From Gammaproteobacteria bacterium (lineage in GTDB: Bacteria; Pseudomonadota; Gammaproteobacteria; GCA-2400775): a DNA stretch of 64,000 nucleotides. Below, piece after piece: positions 30,641-38,084 of the stretch. The translations under genes were made by a program, and so were the position numbers. Each line of letters begins with the position of its first letter. Position 1 is the first letter of the stretch. The notes under the pieces were generated by a model that made no database searches, was not told the origin of the DNA, and saw only the letters and a program-made list of their open reading frames with translations. Where the stretch lies: assembly GCA_015492075.1 (NCBI GenBank), contig WGFU01000019.1, positions 1 through 64,000 of the forward strand. The letters are read 5' to 3'.

Positions 30641-31234
30641 ATGACACTGCCAACACGACTGACATTGCTACGCATTTTTTTGATACCCATTTTTATTGTG
30701 GTATTTTATTTACCCTATGAATGGAGCCCGGTCATCAGTGCGGCAATATTTGGTCTGGCAGCGATTACCGACTGGCTCGATGGTTTTCTCGCACGCAAGC
30801 TTAATCAAGCTTCAGCGCTGGGGGCATTTCTTGACCCAGTTGCGGACAAGTTGATGGTCGCAGTTGCATTGGTGTTGCTGACACAAAAACACCCGACACT
30901 CTATTTTGCTATTCCTTCTGCGGTCATTATTTGTCGCGAAATCGCGGTGTCAGCATTGCGTGAGTGGATGGCAGAGTTGGGTGAGAGTGCCTCGGTGGCA
31001 GTATCTATGATGGGTAAAGTGAAAACCACCGCGCAGATGATCGCTATTCTGCTGCTTTTATATGCGCAACCTATTGCGGGTATCGACAGTTTTTATGTTG
31101 GCTATGTCTTGTTTTACGTGGCTGCCGTGCTCACCTTGTGGTCAATGGTGCTCTATATTAACGCCGCCTGGCCCATGCTTATGCGCCATAAAGGGGTTAC
31201 GTTGGATAACGATGTTAATCGCAATAATCAGTGA
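30641..31234 (+). CDS. pgsA: CDP-diacylglycerol--glycerol-3-phosphate 3-phosphatidyltransferase
   Basis: Makes phosphatidylglycerophosphate, the first committed step to phosphatidylglycerol and cardiolipin, in the inner membrane. 197 residues with several hydrophobic helices. The CDP-alcohol phosphatidyltransferase signature is intact: DWLDGFLAR, then GAFLDPVADK, with the four Asp residues that bind the metals (about residues 43-75). Starts 4 bp after uvrC. The uvrC-pgsA-tRNA-Gly order is common in gammaproteobacteria. Confidence 0.95.
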   Translation: MTLPTRLTLLRIFLIPIFIVVFYLPYEWSPVISAAIFGLAAITDWLDGFLARKLNQASALGAFLDPVADKLMVAVALVLLTQKHPTLYFAIPSAVIICREIAVSALREWMAELGESASVAVSMMGKVKTTAQMIAILLLLYAQPIAGIDSFYVGYVLFYVAAVLTLWSMVLYINAAWPMLMRHKGVTLDNDVNRNNQ

Positions 31235-31254
31235 TTGATAAGTTAATGATCAGC

Positions 31255-31282
31255 TTGACAAAATCTCGCTGCGCTCTACAAT
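31255..31282 (+). promoter_or_regulatory. Promoter of the tRNA-Gly/tRNA-Cys genes
   Basis: TTGACA at 31255-31260 and TACAAT at 31277-31282, spacer 16 bp, followed by a GC-rich discriminator (GGGCGCCC), as in stringently regulated stable-RNA promoters. The tRNA-Gly gene begins 25 bp downstream. Confidence 0.75.
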
Positions 31283-31306
31283 GGGCGCCCTCACCAAATA
31301 AGATTT

Positions 31307-31382
<76 letters not shown>

Positions 31383-31442
31383 AAATTGCGGTTTTTTTGG
31401 CGCTAAAAAATCGCTTAGATCTCTCTTCAAGCGACCACGTAT

Positions 31443-31516
31443 GGCTGGGTGGCAGAGTGGCTATGCAGCGGCCTGCAAAGCCGTGTACGCCGGTTCGATT
31501 CCGGCCTCAGCCTCCA
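31443..31516 (+). tRNA. tRNA-Cys (GCA)
   Basis: Acceptor GGCTGGG pairs with CTCAGCC (one G-U). D-arm GGCAGAGTGGCTATGCAG, anticodon stem CGGCC-type around loop TGCAAA (GCA), T-arm CGCCGGTTCGATTCCGGC, discriminator T, encoded CCA. Confidence 0.94.
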
Positions 31517-31672
31517 AGTAAATCCTGATTTATATGATCCGTACCGTAGCCCGATTTTGTTCGCTTTGATGCAATGGATTCATGTAGAATGTCACGGCTC
31601 AACCTGTGCGTACGCATGGGGAGTGTTAAGAAGTTCATGAGGTCAACAGCCTGCCTCGGCTTCATAGCCTAC

Positions 31673-31759
31673 GCCCGGGTGGCGAAATTGGTAGACGCAA
31701 GGGACTTAAAATCCCTCGGTGGAAACACCGTGCCGGTTCGATTCCGGCCCCGGGCACCA
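31673..31759 (+). tRNA. tRNA-Leu (TAA)
   Basis: Class II tRNA of 87 bases. Acceptor GCCCGGG pairs with CCCGGGC; anticodon stem AGGGA/TCCCT with loop CTTAAAA (TAA); long variable arm TCGGTGGAAACACCGTG; T-arm GCCGGTTCGATTCCGGC; discriminator A and encoded CCA. Its 3' end is the integration site of the element downstream: a copy of the last bases recurs at 36375-36401. Confidence 0.96.
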
Positions 31760-31762
31760 TTA
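31736..31762 (+). repeat. attL: tRNA-Leu 3' end
   Basis: GTTCGATTCCGGCCC, then CGGGCACCATTA. It overlaps the T-arm, acceptor stem and CCA of tRNA-Leu and continues 3 bases past the gene. The partner copy is at 36375-36401. Confidence 0.85.
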
Positions 31763-31892
31763 TCAAAAATCAATGATTTGCGCTTCTTGCCGCTTTTTGA
31801 CACTTCTTACAGTAAAACAGTTACTTAACATGTAATCCCTCTTTTTCTTCCCGCGCGTTACCCCTCTTTTCACCGCTTGATGTATGATTTCC

Positions 31893-31920
31893 TTACGCCA
31901 TATTTACGCCATTGGCGTAA
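31893..31920. repeat. Arm-type site candidate, left end of the element
   Basis: TTACGCCATATTTACGCC, followed by ATTGGCGTAA, so the second TTACGCC is also half of an inverted repeat with GGCGTAA. It lies between attL and the integrase start codon. A matching motif (16 of 18 bases) is at 36320-36337 beside attR. Repeats of this kind at both ends are what integrase N-terminal domains bind. Confidence 0.55.
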
Positions 31921-31937
31921 ATCAAAGGGGGGCATAC

Positions 31938-32042
31938 ATGGCCACATTCAGAAAACGAAACGGCGGCTGGCGCGCCGAGGTGTGTATCAAGGGCACGCGC
32001 ACATCGGCGACCTTCACCACCAAGCGGAAAGCCCAGGCCTAG
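31938..32042 (+). pseudogene. 5' remnant of a tyrosine-recombinase (phage-type) integrase gene
   Basis: ATG at 31938 with AAGGGGGG upstream as ribosome binding site. The 34 codons read MATFRKRNGGWRAEVCIKGT, then RTSATFTTKRKAQA, and stop at TAG 32040. This is the arm-DNA-binding N-terminus of phage-type integrases, where the next residue is normally Trp (TGG). The remaining 300 or so codons, including the Arg-His-Arg-Tyr active site, are absent; the sequence passes into a fragment of an abiEi gene. The protein cannot be a working integrase. Confidence 0.8.
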
Positions 32043-32122
32043 GCGGCGGGCCGGGGCAAACTGAAAAAGCTGGCGCGGGGGGTGCTATGCCTCGGTACCG
32101 CCCGGGGTGGATGCTGCGAAAT
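32043..32122 (+). pseudogene. Fragment of an abiEi gene fused to the integrase remnant
   Basis: About 80 bases match 34528-34606 inside the intact abiEi, with four substitutions and one inserted base (GGTGCTATG against GGTCTATG). The matching part codes for AAGRGKLKKLARG of the N-terminal winged-helix region. It is in the integrase reading frame at the junction, then shifts out of frame at the inserted base. Flanks on both sides differ from the intact copy, so this is a small duplicated or recombined piece. Confidence 0.85.
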
Positions 32123-32304
32123 TATATTACTGTCAGTCAAGTTTTTTATTCAATGGCGCAAATGATTAAAGATTGGTTGTGAAATAATATTTATAAAACA
32201 ATGACTTGTTTGTTTAAGTCTTTAACTGGGCAGGCTTTTCAACACGTCCGCTAACAAGTAATAGTAGCAATAGGTTGAAATAATCCTATAATAGCCGATA
32301 ATTA

Positions 32305-32335
32305 ACAATATATTGTCAATTTGCGCTTATAAAGC
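32305..32335. promoter_or_regulatory. Palindromes just upstream of the AAA-ATPase gene
   Basis: ACAATATATTGT (32305-32316) is a perfect 12-bp palindrome, extended to TT-N-ACAATATATTGT-N-AA by flanking bases. CGCTTATAAAGCG (32323-32335) is a second inverted repeat. TATAAT at 32287-32292 could be a -10 element. The location, 18-48 bp before the start codon, suits an operator. No -35 element at good spacing was seen. Confidence 0.4.
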
Positions 32336-32352
32336 GTTATTTGGGTGCTGTC

Positions 32353-33549
32353 ATGCTTCATAAATACCGATTCAAGAACTTTTTCTCGTTTGCTGGCGAG
32401 ACGGAGGTTTCCTTTTTGCTGAACCGCCAGACTCCAGTAACGGACCTGATCTTCGAGAGTCCAGGTGGCGCCCGCCTATCGAAGGTGCTGGCCGCTATCG
32501 GTCCTAATGCCTCCGGTAAAACCAATGTGTTAAAGCCGCTGGCTTTCCTGAGTTGGTTTGTTGCCCATTCGTTTACTGCCAGCAAACCGGAAGAGGATAT
32601 TCCGGTGCAGGCTCATTTTTTCTCAGACAAGGCGGACTGCGAGTTTGAAATTGAGTTCGAGAACGAGGGTCAGCATTACCGTTATTCGCTTATTGTAAAT
32701 CCAGAACGGGTCGTGCACGAATCCTTGCATCTCAAGACCAGCAAGTTTTTCAGCTTTATTTTCCGGCGTGACTGGTCGGAGCAAGACTCGGGCTACGACA
32801 TACGCCAGCAAAAATTTGGTTTTGCCACTAGAGAAGCAGAAAAAGTACGTCCAAATGCCTCCCTGATTGCGACGGCCGCCCAGTACAATGTGCCATGCGC
32901 TCGTGCACTGGTCAGCTACTTTTCCCGGTTTTATACCAATGTGAACTACGGTGGCAGGGATCACTTCAAGACCAGCGATGTGTTTGACGCTACAGAATTC
33001 TTTCATGGTCGACCGGCTTTGCGTGCGCAGATGTCTGTGCTCTTGAGTCGACTGGATCTCGGTCTCTCAGAGGTTATCATTGAATCCCGCAAGGTTGTGG
33101 AAAAGGAATCAGGCAAGAGCGAAGAGGCCAATATCCCCGTTGGTGTGCACAGAATGAGTGAGCAGGTACAAAAGTTGCCATTCTGGTATGAATCCAGCGG
33201 CACTCAGGCGGCATTTGTGTTGCTTGAGAAGATTCTGCCGGCATTGGAACACGGTGGTATTGTTATCATTGATGAAATGGAGGCAGATCTGCATCCAGAG
33301 ATGATTACCGCGATGCTTGATCTGTTTATTGATCGCGAACGCAACCCACATAATGCGCAAATTATCTTCACCTGCCATGCGCATGAAGTGTTGAACGACT
33401 TGCAGAAAGATCAGGTATTGCTCATAGAGAAGGATACGAATGGATTCAGCGAGGCATGGAGATTGGGCGATATGAAAGGTATCCGGCGGGATGACAACCT
33501 GTACGCTAAGTATCGTGCGGGCGCATATGGCGCCGTACCAAATCTTTGA
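32353..33549 (+). CDS. AAA-family ATPase of a two-gene defence module (RloA/AbiLi-like)
   Basis: About 398 residues from ATG 32353 (MLHKYRFKNFFSFAGETEVS); TTG 32341 is an alternative. It belongs to the AAA_15/AAA_21 SMC-like ATPases of the OLD/RloA type. N-terminal strand with FKNFFSF, Walker A GPNASGKTN (about residues 49-57), a central insertion with two basic helical parts, signature-like YESSGTQAAFVLLEKIL, Walker B GGIVIIDEMEADLHPEM, and IIFTCHAHEVLND at the end. Followed 11 bp later by the RloB gene. Such ATPase/TOPRIM pairs sense phage proteins or DNA and release a toxic nuclease (PARIS, AbiL, Rlo). Which family this one belongs to needs profile search. Confidence 0.85.
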   Translation: MLHKYRFKNFFSFAGETEVSFLLNRQTPVTDLIFESPGGARLSKVLAAIGPNASGKTNVLKPLAFLSWFVAHSFTASKPEEDIPVQAHFFSDKADCEFEIEFENEGQHYRYSLIVNPERVVHESLHLKTSKFFSFIFRRDWSEQDSGYDIRQQKFGFATREAEKVRPNASLIATAAQYNVPCARALVSYFSRFYTNVNYGGRDHFKTSDVFDATEFFHGRPALRAQMSVLLSRLDLGLSEVIIESRKVVEKESGKSEEANIPVGVHRMSEQVQKLPFWYESSGTQAAFVLLEKILPALEHGGIVIIDEMEADLHPEMITAMLDLFIDRERNPHNAQIIFTCHAHEVLNDLQKDQVLLIEKDTNGFSEAWRLGDMKGIRRDDNLYAKYRAGAYGAVPNL

Positions 33550-33560
33550 TGGCATAACAA

Positions 33561-34076
33561 ATGCCAACTCGCAAACGCCGTTCCGTTTCTCATACCGTAC
33601 TATTGGTTGGTGAGGGCGCAACCGAGCAGGCCTTTCTGAAACACATAAAGTCCCTGTACATAAGTCGGGGTTGTGGTGTGGGTGTCACTATCCGCAATGC
33701 TCACGGTAAAGGTCCTGATCATGTGGTGGATTATGCCATTGGGCAGTGCCGCAATGCAGCTTACGATCGAGTTGCGGTGCTTTTGGATACCGACCTGGAA
33801 ATGTCAGCGGCGGCGCGCAGGCGGGCAGGAGCAAACAAACTCCAGATCATCGGAACATCGCCCTGTATTGAAGGCCTGTTGCTCGCAATTCTTGGAGAGC
33901 ATGTGCCGGGAAGCAGTGCAGAATGTAAGGCGCGGTGTGGTGGGATACTTCCCGCTCGGCTGACGTTACCGGAGGACTATCGATCGTATTTTCCAAGAGA
34001 TTTGCTGGATGAGCGGCGGGATGAGGTACCTGAGCTCGGGGAATTGCTGAATAGTCTGACATTTGATGATCGTTAA
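33561..34076 (+). CDS. RloB-like TOPRIM protein, partner of the ATPase
   Basis: 171 residues, start ATG 33561. LLVGEGATEQAFLKHI (about residues 14-29) carries the TOPRIM-type Glu, AVLLDTDLEM (about residues 72-81) the Asp-x-Asp motif, and GTSPCIEGLLLAIL (about residues 97-110) corresponds to the SNPCFE-xx-LLL block of RloB proteins. The rest of the C-terminus is basic and acidic with no clear fold. RloB is usually about 200 residues, so this one is slightly short. It is taken as the effector nuclease (or RNase) of the pair. It lies 11 bp after the ATPase, so the genes are co-transcribed. Confidence 0.8.
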   Translation: MPTRKRRSVSHTVLLVGEGATEQAFLKHIKSLYISRGCGVGVTIRNAHGKGPDHVVDYAIGQCRNAAYDRVAVLLDTDLEMSAAARRRAGANKLQIIGTSPCIEGLLLAILGEHVPGSSAECKARCGGILPARLTLPEDYRSYFPRDLLDERRDEVPELGELLNSLTFDDR

Positions 34077-34416
34077 CCCCAAATTCTTCGCTACAAACTG
34101 TCAGCATGGTCATTCATAGTATGAAGGGTGAGTTGGGTCGGACCTATCTAACTCGCTGAAAAAATGGCAAATCATTGAAAATTGTCCATAAATCCGTGCT
34201 TAAATGACGCATTTCATGGGCGAAATATATGCTTTAAGTCAGGTTACGCAGGATTCCTTTATCACGCTCTGCTCCCGGTAGACCCTCACGCAGATCGCGC
34301 TGAACACGTATACGAAGGGGAGATGGGTGGTTTTCGGATAACACTTGATATTAATGTTGGATATAGGGGAATATAACCCCTATATCCGCAAATAATGACA
34401 AGTTATTGGCTAACCC
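34077..34416. other. Intergenic region between the two defence modules
   Basis: No gene is supported on either strand. The last 60 bases hold the inverted repeat proposed as the abiE operator, TTGATA at 34345-34350 as a weak -35-like element, and TATAAC within the loop of the repeat (34372-34377). Confidence 0.6.
34359..34387. promoter_or_regulatory. Perfect 11-bp inverted repeat upstream of abiEi
   Basis: GGATATAGGGG (34359-34369), spacer AATATAA, CCCCTATATCC (34377-34387). It ends 29 bp before the abiEi start codon. In streptococcal AbiE, AbiEi binds inverted repeats in its own promoter and represses it. The position here is the same, so this is the best operator candidate in the element. 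Confidence 0.7.
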
Positions 34417-35220
34417 ATGGACACCAGCACATTTCTGCAAACACATCGGGTTTTCAACCTTGATGAAGCCGTACAGGCCCTGGCCCCGTCCGGGGGGCGC
34501 AAGGCGACGCTGGAGCGCCTGAACTATGCGGCGGGCAGGGGCAAACTGAAAAAGCTGGCGCGGGGGGTCTATGCTTCGGTTCCACCCGGGGTGGATGCTG
34601 CGAAATTTCAGCCGGATCGCTTTCTTGTGGCGGCGGCGCTGCGGCCGGATGCGGTCTTTTCCCATCACTCGGCGCTTGAACTGCTGGGTGCGGCGCATTC
34701 CGAATGGCGGTTATGCACCGCCTACAGCGCTCGGCGATCGCAGCCGTTCGATGTGGATGGTCTTGAACTGCGCTTTTTGTCCTACCCGCAATCGCTGGTG
34801 CGTCATCAGGCGGTTGACTTAGGTCTACGCGCCGTCCACCGGCTTGATCGTGAACTGCATGTGACCGGACCTGAACGTACCTTGATCGACGGTTTCCGCC
34901 GGCCGGATCGGGTGGGTGGGCTTGCGGAGTTTGTCGAGTCGGCGGCGGGATTCTCTGTGCTGGAGCTGCCATTGTTGTTTGAGCTTCTGGACGTGTTTGG
35001 GCAGAAAGGCTTGTGGGCCGCGGTTGGCTGGTTTCTCGAAACCTACCGTGCCACCTTTTATGTCAGTGATGATGACTTCACAGTCATCGACAAACAGGTT
35101 CCAAAGGCACCGCTTTATCTTGCCAGGGATCAGCGTGGTGGTGTGCTGGTACGGCGTTGGAACCTGATCGTCCCTGATGAACTTGTAACGGGCAAGGAGC
35201 CGGATGAACCTCAGCGCTGA
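34417..35220 (+). CDS. AbiEi antitoxin, type IV toxin-antitoxin system
   Basis: 267 residues. The N-terminus is a winged-helix (VFNLDEAVQALAPSGGRKAT, then RLNYAAGRGKLKKLARGVY, about residues 12-50) that binds DNA. The middle resembles the AbiEi domain: FLVAAALRPDAVFSHHSALE and TGPERTLIDGF (about residues 68-160), and the C-terminal part needed to neutralise the toxin (FYVSDDDFTVIDKQ) is present. It is complete. The gene is preceded by the inverted repeat and followed by abiEii, which overlaps its last 17 bases. A second, broken copy of its start is found at 32043-32122. Confidence 0.85.
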   Translation: MDTSTFLQTHRVFNLDEAVQALAPSGGRKATLERLNYAAGRGKLKKLARGVYASVPPGVDAAKFQPDRFLVAAALRPDAVFSHHSALELLGAAHSEWRLCTAYSARRSQPFDVDGLELRFLSYPQSLVRHQAVDLGLRAVHRLDRELHVTGPERTLIDGFRRPDRVGGLAEFVESAAGFSVLELPLLFELLDVFGQKGLWAAVGWFLETYRATFYVSDDDFTVIDKQVPKAPLYLARDQRGGVLVRRWNLIVPDELVTGKEPDEPQR

Positions 35221-36161
35221 ACACATTGAAAGACTGGTGACAGAGACCGGCTTCCGTCCGGAGACGCTGGAGAAGCTAATCCGCCTGGGCGAATTTGCGG
35301 CAGACGCCGGGCGTCATCCGCTGCTGTCGCGTGTGCTGGCCCTGAAGGGTGGTACAGCGTTGAACCTGATGTTTGGTTCTCCGGCCCGGTTATCGGTTGA
35401 TCTCGATTTCAATTACATCGGGCAGGCCGACCGGGTGGGTATGCAGGCCGAGCGCCCGGAGGTGGAACGGGCCATTGCGATCATCGGAGAATGGCAGGGA
35501 TACCGTGTGCAGCAGTCACGCGACGCCCATGCCGGCCGGAAGATCTATCTTTCCTACACCAGCTCGGCCGGTACGCCTGACCGTATCGAGGTTGATCTGA
35601 ATTTTCTGTTTCGCATACCGCTCGGGGAAATCATAACCCGGCCACTCTGGCAACCACCGGGAATCGCGCGCCCGGAGATTCGGGTCGTGCCGCTGGAAGA
35701 GTTGTTTACCGGAAAACTGCGTGCCACCCTGGGTCGGGCGATGCCCCGCGATTTGTTCGATACCATTCGTTTGCCCGAATACGGGGCGGGTATCTGGGGA
35801 AGTCGGCGATTGCGCCGGATTCACGTGACGCTGGGTGTTGCACTGGTTCTACCAATACGGACGAGATCGCTTTGAGCGTGTGACCAACAGAAGTATCGAG
35901 GAGCAGCTCTTGCCCATGCTTCAGGCTAACGAGCAGCCAGTGGCAAGCGAGTTAAAGGAACAGGCGTGGGCCGTGATGGAACCGCTGGTTATGCTTGATG
36001 AGGCCGAGCGGGAATATGTGGATCGAGTACATGCCGGTGAACTGTCGCCGGAATTGCTGTTTCCCGATGACGAGGCACTGGCTGATCGGCTGGTACGGCA
36101 TCCGGTATTGCTGTGGAAGATCGAAAACGTGAGACGGCATCTTTCCAGATCACGCCGGTAA
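35204..36161 (+). pseudogene. AbiEii toxin gene, frameshifted
   Basis: Nucleotidyltransferase of the DUF1814/AbiEii family. The first frame (35204-35875, 223 residues) has the core LKGGTALNLMFGS and SVDLDFNYI (GG...DxD, about residues 47-70), DRIEVDLNFLFR and LEELFTGKLRATLGRAMPRDLFD. It runs out of family sequence near codon 210 (RIHVTLGV). Family sequence resumes in another frame from about 35838 (LHWFYQYGRDRFERVTNRSI, then EEQLLPMLQAN) to 36161. Switch must lie between 35829 and 35872; one base is gained or two lost. Either the toxin is inactivated, or the assembly has an error here. Overlaps abiEi by 17 bp. Confidence 0.75.
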
Positions 36162-36319
36162 GATGCGCGGTTTTTTCGTGTAGGACTTATACAGGATTGA
36201 GTTCTGTATCGTCCTGCGTTGCCAGGTAAAAAAAGCGCGTGATCTAGTGAGGCGAAGTTAAGGATTGTATACTCAGGTTGCATGAGCCGGCCGGTGGCGG
36301 AACTCAAATTGCTGAGCAA

Positions 36320-36348
36320 TTACGCCAGTTTTACGCCTACGCCACGCA
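36320..36348. repeat. Arm-type site candidate, right end of the element
   Basis: TTACGCCAGTTTTACGCC, followed by TACGCC. 16 of the first 18 bases match the motif at 31893-31910. It lies 27 bases inside attR. Confidence 0.55.
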
Positions 36349-36374
36349 AAGGTAACTATTTGTTTATAAATGGC

Positions 36375-36401
36375 GTTCGATTCCGGCCCTAGGCACCATT
36401 A
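36375..36401 (+). repeat. attR: copy of the tRNA-Leu 3' end
   Basis: GTTCGATTCCGGCCC, then TAGGCACCATTA. Differs from attL only at CCCTAGG against CCCCGGG. No other part of a tRNA gene is present here, so it is a remnant made by integration. Confidence 0.85.
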
Positions 36402-36845
36402 ATTTCAATGGGTTGTGCATTGTTTCTAGAAATATTCTAGTCTTGTTTGCCGACTTTCCTTGCCGCAGCATAATAGTGTCGATGTCTCATCTTATGGCCG
36501 CCGCGCCTAGATTTAACGCGAGCACGTCTACATTTTTCTGGCGCGCTGCCTTGGGTAGGCGGTCCGACATGGCTGTCGATCCAATCAATTGGGTGGATAG
36601 TTTCAGTACGCTATGTCGTGCTCATGCTATTTGGCCCGGCAGGCGAAAAATGCCAGCTTGCGTTGTCATTGTGGCAGAGGCCACTTTATCTGCACGCTAC
36701 TAAAAGCAGACACCAGCTTCACAGTAAAATGACAGTTTGGCGATCAGTTTTTAACATTTTAGAGCCTATACTGTGTGTTAGCGCCATTTAACGCATATTT
36801 ACAGCCGGGTTGATGGCGGTTTTTTATACTACCGCTGGAGATTGA
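36402..36845. other. Intergenic region after attR
   Basis: No gene is supported. A 96-codon frame (36413-36703) has no recognisable motif and no ribosome binding site. The final part before the next gene includes TTTTTTATACTACC (near 36820), with TATACT as a possible -10 element, and CTGGAG (near 36835) before the GTG/ATG codons of the ATP-grasp gene. Confidence 0.4.
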
Positions 36846-38084
36846 TTGTGTCAGCGCATTTTTTATCAAAAATATGACGACATGCTCATGAACCGTAGCG
36901 GTATAGCTGCTAAAATCTCGCCATCTTTCTCCAATCTATGTAATTCGGATGCTTCCCACACAATGAGTCGAGCTGTAATGCCTGATCGCAGTTACGTAAC
37001 ACCTGGCATGCCTCCCCTTGATAGCTCTGCTCAAGCGGTTTCTTTTTTTGAGTTTTGGCCCGCCTGGCTAATGTATGGTCCCGTTGTATTGCAGTGGCTG
37101 GCGCTGTCGCTCTATTACCGATCATTGTCGCTGCCCTTGATTGCAAATCCTAATATGCCTAGTGCTGGCATGGTGGGTTTTTCGAAAAGTGATTTTTTGG
37201 CGCAAGCACAGGCAAATAGCCAGTCCTGGATATTGCCATGGGTGCGCCATACCATGAGCCAGGAGTCGGTGGTCTCTCAGGGCGATCAGCTCGCGTCCAA
37301 AATGATCGATGCTGGCTTGTCATTTCCCATTGTCGGCAAGCCGGATATGGGTTGCCGTGGTGTTGGGGTCAGGCTCATCGGGACGCAAGCCGAGTTGTAT
37401 GATTACCTATCGCATTACCTAGTGGGCAGTACCTTAATGTTACAGCAGTTGGCAGACTGGGAGCCAGAAGCGGGCGTGTTTTATGTTCGTCACCCTGACG
37501 AAGAGAAGGGGCGTATTGTCTCGATGGCATTAAAATATTCGCCTTATGTGGTTGGCGATGGGGTCAGTACGCTACGCCAGTTGTTGCTAGCCGATAGCCG
37601 TGCGCGTCAGATCATGCACTTGTATGCGGCACGTCATCAGGATAGGTTCGAACAGGTGATTGCCGAAGATGAACCGTTTCGACTGGTGTTCGCAGCCAGT
37701 CATAGCTGTGGCGCGGTGTTTCGCGACGGTCGGCAGTATATTACGGACGCATTAACCGACCGTATTAACGAGATTATGTCGGGCTTTCCCGAGTTTTATT
37801 ATGGGCGGCTAGACATTAAATTCAAGACGCTTGAGCAGATGATGAGGGGCGATGAGTTGGCCATTATCGAGGTCAATGGCGCCAGCTCTGAATCGTTGCA
37901 TATCTGGGATAATCAGGCGCGGTTGCGAGAAGCATGGTCAGTATTGTTTAGTCAATATAACACTTTGTTTAAAATTGGCGCGATGAACAAAAAACGTGGT
38001 TATCGGCCACCAGGATTGATGAGCTTGTGGAAAGCTTGGCGCACAGAACAGGCCTTATCAAGTCATTATCCGGCGACAGATTGA
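36846..38084 (+). CDS. ATP-grasp ligase of an OlsF-linked operon
   Basis: 412 residues from the longest frame; the true start may be one of several in-frame ATG codons up to about residue 54, since family sequence begins near FFEFWPAWLMY (residue about 68). Then come NPNMPSAGMVGFSKSDFL, the ATP-grasp A-loop (FPIVGKPDMGCRGVGVRLI, with the ATP-binding Lys), LMLQQLADWEPEAGVFYVRH, and a metal-binding end with YGRLDIKFKTLEQM and IIEVNGASSESLHIWD (Glu and Asn). This is the fold of D-Ala-D-Ala-like carboxylate-amine ligases. The substrate is unknown. One base separates its stop from the acyltransferase start. Confidence 0.75.
   Translation: MCQRIFYQKYDDMLMNRSGIAAKISPSFSNLCNSDASHTMSRAVMPDRSYVTPGMPPLDSSAQAVSFFEFWPAWLMYGPVVLQWLALSLYYRSLSLPLIANPNMPSAGMVGFSKSDFLAQAQANSQSWILPWVRHTMSQESVVSQGDQLASKMIDAGLSFPIVGKPDMGCRGVGVRLIGTQAELYDYLSHYLVGSTLMLQQLADWEPEAGVFYVRHPDEEKGRIVSMALKYSPYVVGDGVSTLRQLLLADSRARQIMHLYAARHQDRFEQVIAEDEPFRLVFAASHSCGAVFRDGRQYITDALTDRINEIMSGFPEFYYGRLDIKFKTLEQMMRGDELAIIEVNGASSESLHIWDNQARLREAWSVLFSQYNTLFKIGAMNKKRGYRPPGLMSLWKAWRTEQALSSHYPATD

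What the first reader, a model, noticed from the sequence alone, without database searches (positions are those of the whole stretch)
32353..34076. AAA-ATPase plus RloB/TOPRIM pair: candidate anti-phage module
An SMC-like ATPase (Walker A GPNASGKTN, Walker B IIDEMEADLHPE) is followed after 11 bp by a short TOPRIM-like RloB protein (VGEGATE, LLDTDLE). The layout resembles AbiL, Rlo and PARIS systems, in which ATPase sensing releases a nuclease. The RloB partner is slightly shorter than usual. Together with the abiE module in one island, this pair may be a distinct subtype.
Basis: partly seen in the sequence, partly recalled or inferred. Interest (0 to 1): 0.75.

Follow-up and report, generated by a model that had tools for sequence, protein, structure and literature searches.

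The report
AbiL-type phage-defence gene pair
This is an intact two-gene bacterial anti-virus module of a known kind (AbiL: an ATPase plus a nuclease-like partner) on a small decayed island at a tRNA gene; the new part is a short palindromic DNA site in front of the genes that travels with them across many unrelated bacteria and probably lets the module switch itself off.

Summary
The pair is an SMC/Rad50-like ATPase (32353-33549, 398 aa) and, 11 bp on, a 171-aa RloB/TOPRIM protein (33561-34076). PADLOC profiles name them AbiLi (E=9e-75) and AbiLii (E=1e-16). Catalytic motifs are conserved, AlphaFold models are confident, dN/dS is 0.05-0.25. The short RloB is normal: in all 56 loci found with an RloB relative, the gene stands directly behind an AbiLi-type ATPase, and complete copies are about 167-187 aa. 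So this is a new member of a known kind, not a distinct subtype. The neighbouring abiE is accidental: its toxin gene is frameshifted and relatives lack it. The island (31736-36401) is bounded by a tRNA-Leu 3' end and its 25/27 copy. Close relatives of the pair also sit beside tRNA genes (6 of 8).

Unexpected: a palindrome, TYRACA-N6-TGTYRA, overlaps the promoter (window 32302-32319). A matrix built from 8 close relatives picks the upstream region as the best window in 28 of 37 other loci. In host genomes the pattern occurs at chance level. Its position relative to the promoter shifts, and it keeps its symmetry through paired changes. The likeliest reading is an autoregulatory operator. Which protein binds it, what the nuclease cuts and what triggers it are untested.

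The parts
31673..31759 (+). tRNA-Leu (TAA), the integration site of the island
   Evidence: ARAGORN, Rfam
31736..31762 (+). attL: tRNA-Leu 3' end
   Evidence: Direct repeat D1, 25 of 27 identical to 36375-36401
31938..32042 (+). 34-codon ORF stub MATFRKRNGGWRAEV...: looks like the start of a phage-type integrase, then a stop
   Evidence: Read by eye; no Pfam match, so only tentative
32039..32123 (+). Relic of a second abiEi, a copy of 34524-34607
   Evidence: Repeats D2 and D3, 89-96% identical
32275..32302 (+). Promoter of the pair: -35 TTGAAA, 16-nt spacer, -10 GATAAT
   Evidence: Consensus scan (alone no better than shuffles), but conserved in close relatives
32302..32319 (.). Palindromic site TTAACAATATATTGTCAA, the probable operator, abutting the -10
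   Evidence: Conserved across the clade; one other match in the own genome
32353..33549 (+). AbiLi-type ATPase, 398 aa
   Evidence: PADLOC AbiLi E=9.4e-75, Pfam AAA_21, model pLDDT 91 with a Rad50/SMC/PtuA-type head
33561..34076 (+). AbiLii-type RloB/TOPRIM protein, 171 aa; E18, D76, D78 and E104 conserved
   Evidence: PADLOC AbiLii E=1e-16, Pfam RloB, model pLDDT 92.7 with OLD TOPRIM domains among the top matches
34285..34311 (-). 27-bp relic of a ribbon-helix-helix antitoxin-like gene also present next to the pair in L009 and L008
   Evidence: BLASTN 96% to L009, reading frames, RHH_9 match of the L009 copy
34417..35220 (+). abiEi, intact ORF; passenger of the island
   Evidence: PADLOC AbiEi E=1.7e-64
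35204..36161 (+). abiEii, broken: 35204-35875 covers profile 1-203, 35835-36161 in another frame covers 218-306
36375..36401 (+). attR: copy of the tRNA-Leu 3' end, right border of the island
   Evidence: Direct repeat D1

Best explanation
The pair is a complete AbiL-type (RloAB-type) abortive-infection module. Inferred mechanism: the SMC/Rad50-like ATPase AbiLi holds the small TOPRIM protein AbiLii inactive in a complex. Under phage infection the ATPase releases or activates AbiLii, a two-metal TOPRIM nuclease, which cuts nucleic acid (RNA or tRNA more likely than DNA, by analogy with AriB) and stops the infected cell. In the uninfected cell the operon is kept low by a dimeric repressor bound to the palindrome that overlaps the promoter. 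Because this site follows the pair through unrelated hosts and no third gene does, the repressor is most likely the AbiLi/AbiLii complex itself. Shown here: gene pair, fold, conserved motifs, selection, obligate pairing, and a conserved palindrome at the promoter. Inferred: inhibition, trigger, substrate, and the identity of the repressor.
For: Profiles: AbiLi E=9.4e-75 and AbiLii E=1e-16; 43/43 and 44/44 relatives match the same models. Obligate pairing: all 56 other loci with an RloB relative have the AbiLi-type ATPase directly upstream, gap mostly -4 to +23 bp. Both trees hold the same seven-member clade. TOPRIM: E18 and D78 invariant, D76 and E104 at 90% or more; model pLDDT 92.7, best matches PH0156 Z 9.7 (rmsd 3.1, 149 aligned), T. 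scotoductus OLD Z 9.3 (rmsd 3.6, 132 aligned), B. pseudomallei OLD Z 8.9 (rmsd 4.1, 146 aligned); GajA profile matches 36 of 44. ATPase: model pLDDT 91.2, Rad50 Z 20.9 (rmsd 3.2, 273 aligned), PtuA Z 19.1 (rmsd 3.8, 297 aligned). Selection: dN/dS 0.05-0.25. Operator: PWM from 8 sites makes the upstream region the best of 105-483 windows in 28 of 37 other loci; loci fetched later also carry it, clearly in L079-L081; own genome has one other match and 12 host genomes have chance-level counts; half-sites change together, ACA..TGT to ACG..CGT, in L023/L026/L036. Literature: Clostridium RloB-type TOPRIM toxin paired with an AAA antitoxin (PMC10440598); Fusobacterium AbiLii toxic in E. coli (PMC3985639); AriB is a TOPRIM tRNase held by AriA (PMC12409363).
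Against: In the one direct test of an AbiL pair as toxin-antitoxin, F. nucleatum AbiLi did not neutralise AbiLii, and L. lactis AbiLii was not toxic in E. coli (PMC3985639). The TOPRIM call by fold rests on Z 8-10, only a little above unrelated Rossmann folds (lumazine synthase 7.8). Sequence search against the PDB found no credible match for RloB. Neither protein has a recognisable DNA-binding motif that would explain operator binding. The palindrome is not found in L031, L048 or L049 and is poor in several distant loci. Substrate and trigger are unknown.
Confidence: 0.75

Rival explanations
1. Same AbiL pair, but the palindrome is bound by a host repressor rather than by AbiLi/AbiLii.
For: Neither protein shows a classical DNA-binding domain. 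Host repressors silencing acquired genes are common (general knowledge).
Against: The site is conserved in Gamma- and Betaproteobacteria, Omnitrophota, Lentisphaerota, Chlorobiota and other loci, and exact matches in 13 host genomes are at chance level, so there is no sign of a host regulon with this site. No third gene is shared: DNA homology to the closest loci covers only 32270-34060 apart from one 27-bp relic.
Confidence: 0.2
2. A PARIS-like system in the strict sense: the ATPase senses a phage anti-restriction protein and releases a tRNase.
For: Same two-gene ATPase plus TOPRIM architecture. Second-best PADLOC match is AriA (E=6.7e-34). AriB is a TOPRIM tRNase.
Against: The AriA model matched has the length and range of the generic AAA_21 domain. 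No AriB or DUF4435 match for the second protein at E<=1.
Confidence: 0.12
3. A DNA-targeting OLD/Gabija-like nuclease split in two: the ATPase gates a TOPRIM that nicks phage DNA, perhaps at palindromic sites like the one in its own promoter.
For: OLD TOPRIM domains are among the best fold matches. GajA profile matches 36 of 44 RloBs. GajA is reported as a sequence-specific endonuclease (PMC10440598).
Against: Separate genes, no GajB helicase beside it. AriB, the split-gene case studied, cuts tRNA. No test of substrate here.
Confidence: 0.2
4. A decayed island relic without function.
For: Integrase-like stub, broken abiEii and an abiEi fragment in the same island.
Against: Both genes are full length with all motifs, under purifying selection against close relatives, with promoter and operator conserved.
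Confidence: 0.05

Closest known systems
AbiL (AbiLi/AbiLii), Lactococcus lactis plasmid abortive infection system; PADLOC AbiL
   Same: Two-gene order, ATPase with SMC-like motifs, small RloB/TOPRIM partner; both proteins hit the AbiL profiles best and so do all relatives scanned
   Different: Chromosomal tRNA-linked island instead of a lactococcal plasmid (sequence not compared directly with lactococcal AbiL, only with the profiles); conserved palindromic operator, for which no description was found in the papers searched
RloA/RloB (restriction-linked ORFs)
   Same: RloB Pfam family; loci L008 and L009 carry relics read as an RHH antitoxin and HsdR beside the pair, with Pfam support for one copy of each
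   Different: No type I R-M genes in the window island; the Pfam match covers only model positions 2-120 of 195
NetFlax AAA D29 : TOPRIM_OLD D44 toxin-antitoxin pair of Clostridium algidicarnis (PMC10440598)
   Same: RloB-type TOPRIM toxin with AAA-ATPase antitoxin
   Different: Neutralisation was tested there, not here; order, operator and phage effect not compared
PARIS (AriA/AriB)
   Same: Separate ATPase and TOPRIM proteins
   Different: AriB/DUF4435 profile not matched; partner is RloB
Gabija / OLD nucleases
   Same: ABC ATPase plus TOPRIM fold (fold Z 8-9)
   Different: Two proteins instead of one; no GajB helicase

Membership tests
AbiL | AbiLi ATPase matching the AbiLi profile, full length | tested here: met
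   PDLC02335 E=9.4e-75, residues 1-398; 43/43 relatives
AbiL | AbiLii partner matching the AbiLii profile, directly downstream | tested here: met
   PDLC02338 E=1e-16, residues 44-165 of 171; 44/44 relatives; gap 11 bp
AbiL | ATPase motifs intact (Walker A, signature, Walker B, His switch) | tested here: met
   G50, N52, G55, K56; S281, G283, T284; D307, E308; H342 invariant in 43
AbiL | TOPRIM-type active site in AbiLii (Glu, then DxD) | tested here: met
   E18 and D78 invariant, D76 at 90% or more of 44; OLD TOPRIM among best fold matches
AbiL | AbiLii toxic; phage exclusion by the pair | not testable with these tools
   needs expression and plaque assays
PARIS | AriB (DUF4435) TOPRIM partner | tested here: not met
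   No AriB or DUF4435 match at E<=1 in PADLOC or Pfam
PARIS | AriA-type ATPase | tested here: inconclusive
   PADLOC AriA E=6.7e-34, far behind AbiLi; the model matched has the length of the generic AAA_21 domain
OLD / Gabija | ATPase and TOPRIM in one chain, GajB helicase for Gabija | tested here: not met
   Two ORFs; the neighbour downstream is abiE, not a helicase
Septu (PtuA/PtuB) | HNH nuclease partner | tested here: not met
   Partner is RloB; PtuA fold similarity of the ATPase is Z 19.1
RloABC linked to type I R-M | hsd genes adjacent | tested here: not met
   None among the genes of the island identified here; relics only in L008 and L009
Type IV toxin-antitoxin AbiE (neighbour) | Intact AbiEi and AbiEii | tested here: not met
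   AbiEii split over two frames

The most novel reading that the evidence does not exclude
AbiL modules are autoregulated: the SMC-like ATPase, its TOPRIM partner or their complex, with no recognisable DNA-binding domain, specifically binds an 18-bp palindrome (TYRACA-N6-TGTYRA) in its own promoter, and phage infection relieves this binding, so that sensing, repression and nuclease control are one event.
Probability: 0.4. Interest if true: 0.65.

Novelty: new member of a known kind. Interest (0 to 1): 0.42.

Why it matters
How AbiL works has remained open since its description in 1999. A conserved, self-carried operator gives a direct handle: it predicts that the ATPase-nuclease pair binds a defined 18-bp DNA site, which can be tested by gel shift, reporter fusion and structure determination with DNA. 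It may also help to recognise AbiL operons by a promoter signature. The tRNA-linked mini-islands show how such a 1.8-kb cassette spreads without large mobile elements.

Tried and rejected
Distinct subtype because of short RloB: rejected, complete copies are about the same length throughout the clade. Functional coupling with abiE: rejected, not conserved next to the pair, and abiEii is broken. PARIS: rejected as membership; no AriA chain is seen among the 50 rows of the VIA list or the 50 rows of Foldseek, which proves nothing. Retron or ncRNA partner: Rfam finds only tRNAs in 31000-37500. RNA hairpin instead of DNA operator: unlikely, since in the close clade the palindrome starts at the -10, so transcription would start inside it, and in the Omnitrophota clade its left half is the -35 itself. 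P0002 alone against viral contigs gave no relative; an alignment worked. A sequence profile of RloB against the PDB found nothing credible. The empty tRNA-Leu site was not seen in sibling genomes: one sibling carries another insertion in the same tRNA, another contig ends at tRNA-Cys. Pairwise column shuffling of operator half-sites gives only weak covariation within the 31 ACA..TGT sites (best p 0.02); the stronger argument is the coordinated ACG..CGT change in one subclade.

Full report
1. Observation. The quoted motifs are all present. The window lies in contig 19 of an incomplete 1.65-Mb genome. The closest homologous pairs are mostly in gammaproteobacterial assemblies. The four held siblings of the same genus gave no match to the RloB.

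2. Identity. Pfam gives AAA_21 (E=3e-27) and RloB (E=1.9e-9, model 2-120 of 195). PADLOC gives AbiLi (E=9.4e-75) and AbiLii (E=1e-16), with AriA, PtuA and HEC-01A far behind for the ATPase, and GajA as the only other match of RloB. NCBIfam has no model above cut-off. AbiL is thus the closest named system, and both profile criteria are met.

3. Family. A scan with four RloB sequences brought 36 loci from species genomes and 17 from viral contigs. With three annotated records that makes 56 loci with an RloB relative, some of them near-duplicates. In all of them the gene stands directly behind an AbiLi-type ATPase, the gap mostly between -4 and +23 bp; complete RloBs are about 167-187 aa, a few ORF calls running longer because of upstream starts or frame changes. 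PADLOC AbiLi and AbiLii match 43/43 and 44/44 members. Trees of both proteins hold the same strongly supported seven-member clade around the window copy. In that clade the ATPase is 74-90% and the RloB 65-77% identical to the window's, with dN/dS 0.05-0.10 and 0.10-0.25. The RloB changes faster, most of all in its last 35 residues, but both are under purifying selection.

4. Fold and active site. The RloB model has pLDDT 92.7 and an alternating strand-helix core. Foldseek alone gives no E below 1e-3, but the second aligner ranks PH0156 (Z 9.7), T. scotoductus OLD (9.3) and the B. pseudomallei and X. campestris OLD TOPRIM domains (8.1-8.9) near the top, just above a Rossmann background of 7.8-8.1. 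With E18 and D78 invariant, D76 and E104 at 90% or more in 44 sequences, and the GajA TOPRIM profile hitting 36 of 44, a TOPRIM nuclease is well supported. The ATPase model (pLDDT 91.2) is a Rad50/SMC/PtuA-type head (Z up to 20.9), with Walker A, signature, Walker B and switch histidine invariant.

5. Island. A 27-bp copy of the tRNA-Leu 3' end at 36375-36401 (25/27) marks attR. The island is therefore 31736-36401. It holds a 34-codon stub that looks like an integrase start (no Pfam support), a relic of a second abiEi at 32039-32123, the pair, a 27-bp relic of an RHH antitoxin-like gene, abiEi, and abiEii broken over two frames. DNA homology to the closest loci spans 32270-34060, apart from that 27-bp relic, so a 1.8-kb cassette is the conserved unit. 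Of the eight members of the close clade with enough flank, six have a tRNA gene within 1.6 kb upstream, each time a different one (Leu, Val, Ala, Phe, Asp, SeC); L008 even shows a tRNA-Val 3'-end repeat behind the pair. None of 27 more distant loci with enough flank does (one-sided p=1.7e-5; shared ancestry and short contigs weaken this number). The tRNA cluster is a hotspot in the genus: in one sibling the same tRNA-Leu is interrupted in the anticodon loop beside an integrase-like end (weak match), and another has 2.9 kb with a ParE-type toxin and an HTH gene between tRNA-Gly and tRNA-Cys.

6. Operator. Alignment of the eight closest upstream regions shows a -35 (mostly CTTGA), a -10 (GATAAT or TATAAT in most), and directly on it the palindrome TTAACA-N6-TGTTAA; in the window 32302-32319. 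A weight matrix from only these eight sites was used on 37 other loci: in 28 of them the 150 bp upstream of the ATPase score higher than each of 105-483 other windows of the same locus. Loci fetched later carry it as well: L079-L081 with no control window as good, L092/L093 (one of two without), and L082, L083, L101, L102 with a few control windows as good. The position differs by subclade: at the -10 in the close clade, at the -35 in the Omnitrophota group (TTGACA is its left half), and at -30 in part of the prophage group. In L023/L026/L036 both half-sites change together to ACG..CGT, L026 being a perfect 20-bp palindrome; L082 has TCCACA..TGTGGA. The own genome has one other exact match and 12 host genomes have 1-6 each, about as expected by chance; all five matches there with a spacer of only A and T are the sites in front of the pair (positions compared). 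The site therefore belongs to the pair, not to a host regulon, and as no third gene is shared, autoregulation by AbiLi/AbiLii is the best reading. It is not shown which protein binds.

7. Mechanism. From literature: an RloB-type TOPRIM toxin is paired with an AAA antitoxin in C. algidicarnis (PMC10440598); F. nucleatum AbiLii is toxic in E. coli but was not neutralised by AbiLi (PMC3985639); in PARIS the ATPase AriA sequesters AriB, a two-metal TOPRIM tRNase (PMC12409363). My reading: AbiLi holds AbiLii inactive and, with it, represses the promoter; infection switches the ATPase, releasing a nuclease that stops the cell. Substrate and trigger are open.

8. Verdict. The self-carried operator is the part worth following. 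In the papers searched I found no description of it; subscription journals are not covered.

Noticed in passing
window 35204-36161: abiEii is split by a frameshift (profile 1-203 in one frame, 218-306 in the other), so the AbiE toxin is probably dead or the assembly has an error.
   Followed up: yes
window 32039-32123: An 85-bp relic of a second abiEi lies between the integrase-like stub and the pair, 89-96% identical in two blocks to 34524-34607.
   Followed up: partly
L069 1-263 (sibling genome G001): The same tRNA-Leu is interrupted in its anticodon loop by a different insertion that ends in an integrase-like C-terminus.
   Followed up: partly
L068 78-3040 (sibling genome G004): About 2.9 kb between tRNA-Gly and tRNA-Cys with a ParE-type toxin, an HTH antitoxin-like gene and weak matches to PADLOC candidate families PDC-S05 and PDC-M14B.
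   Followed up: partly
L008 1476-2390 and L009 3683-4240: Relics read as an RHH antitoxin and HsdR N-terminus beside the pair (Pfam: HSDR_N for the L008 copy, RHH_9 for the L009 copy): the islands once carried type I restriction genes.
   Followed up: partly
L006 (Stenotrophomonas phage BUCT708) 2748-4399: A phage genome carries the same ATPase/RloB pair amid replication genes, and its RloB is nearly identical to copies in several viral contigs (L050-L053).
   Followed up: no
L020, L022 upstream of the ATPase: A second, partial copy of the palindrome half-sites (ending TTGTTGA) lies nearer the start codon, hinting at two operators.
   Followed up: no
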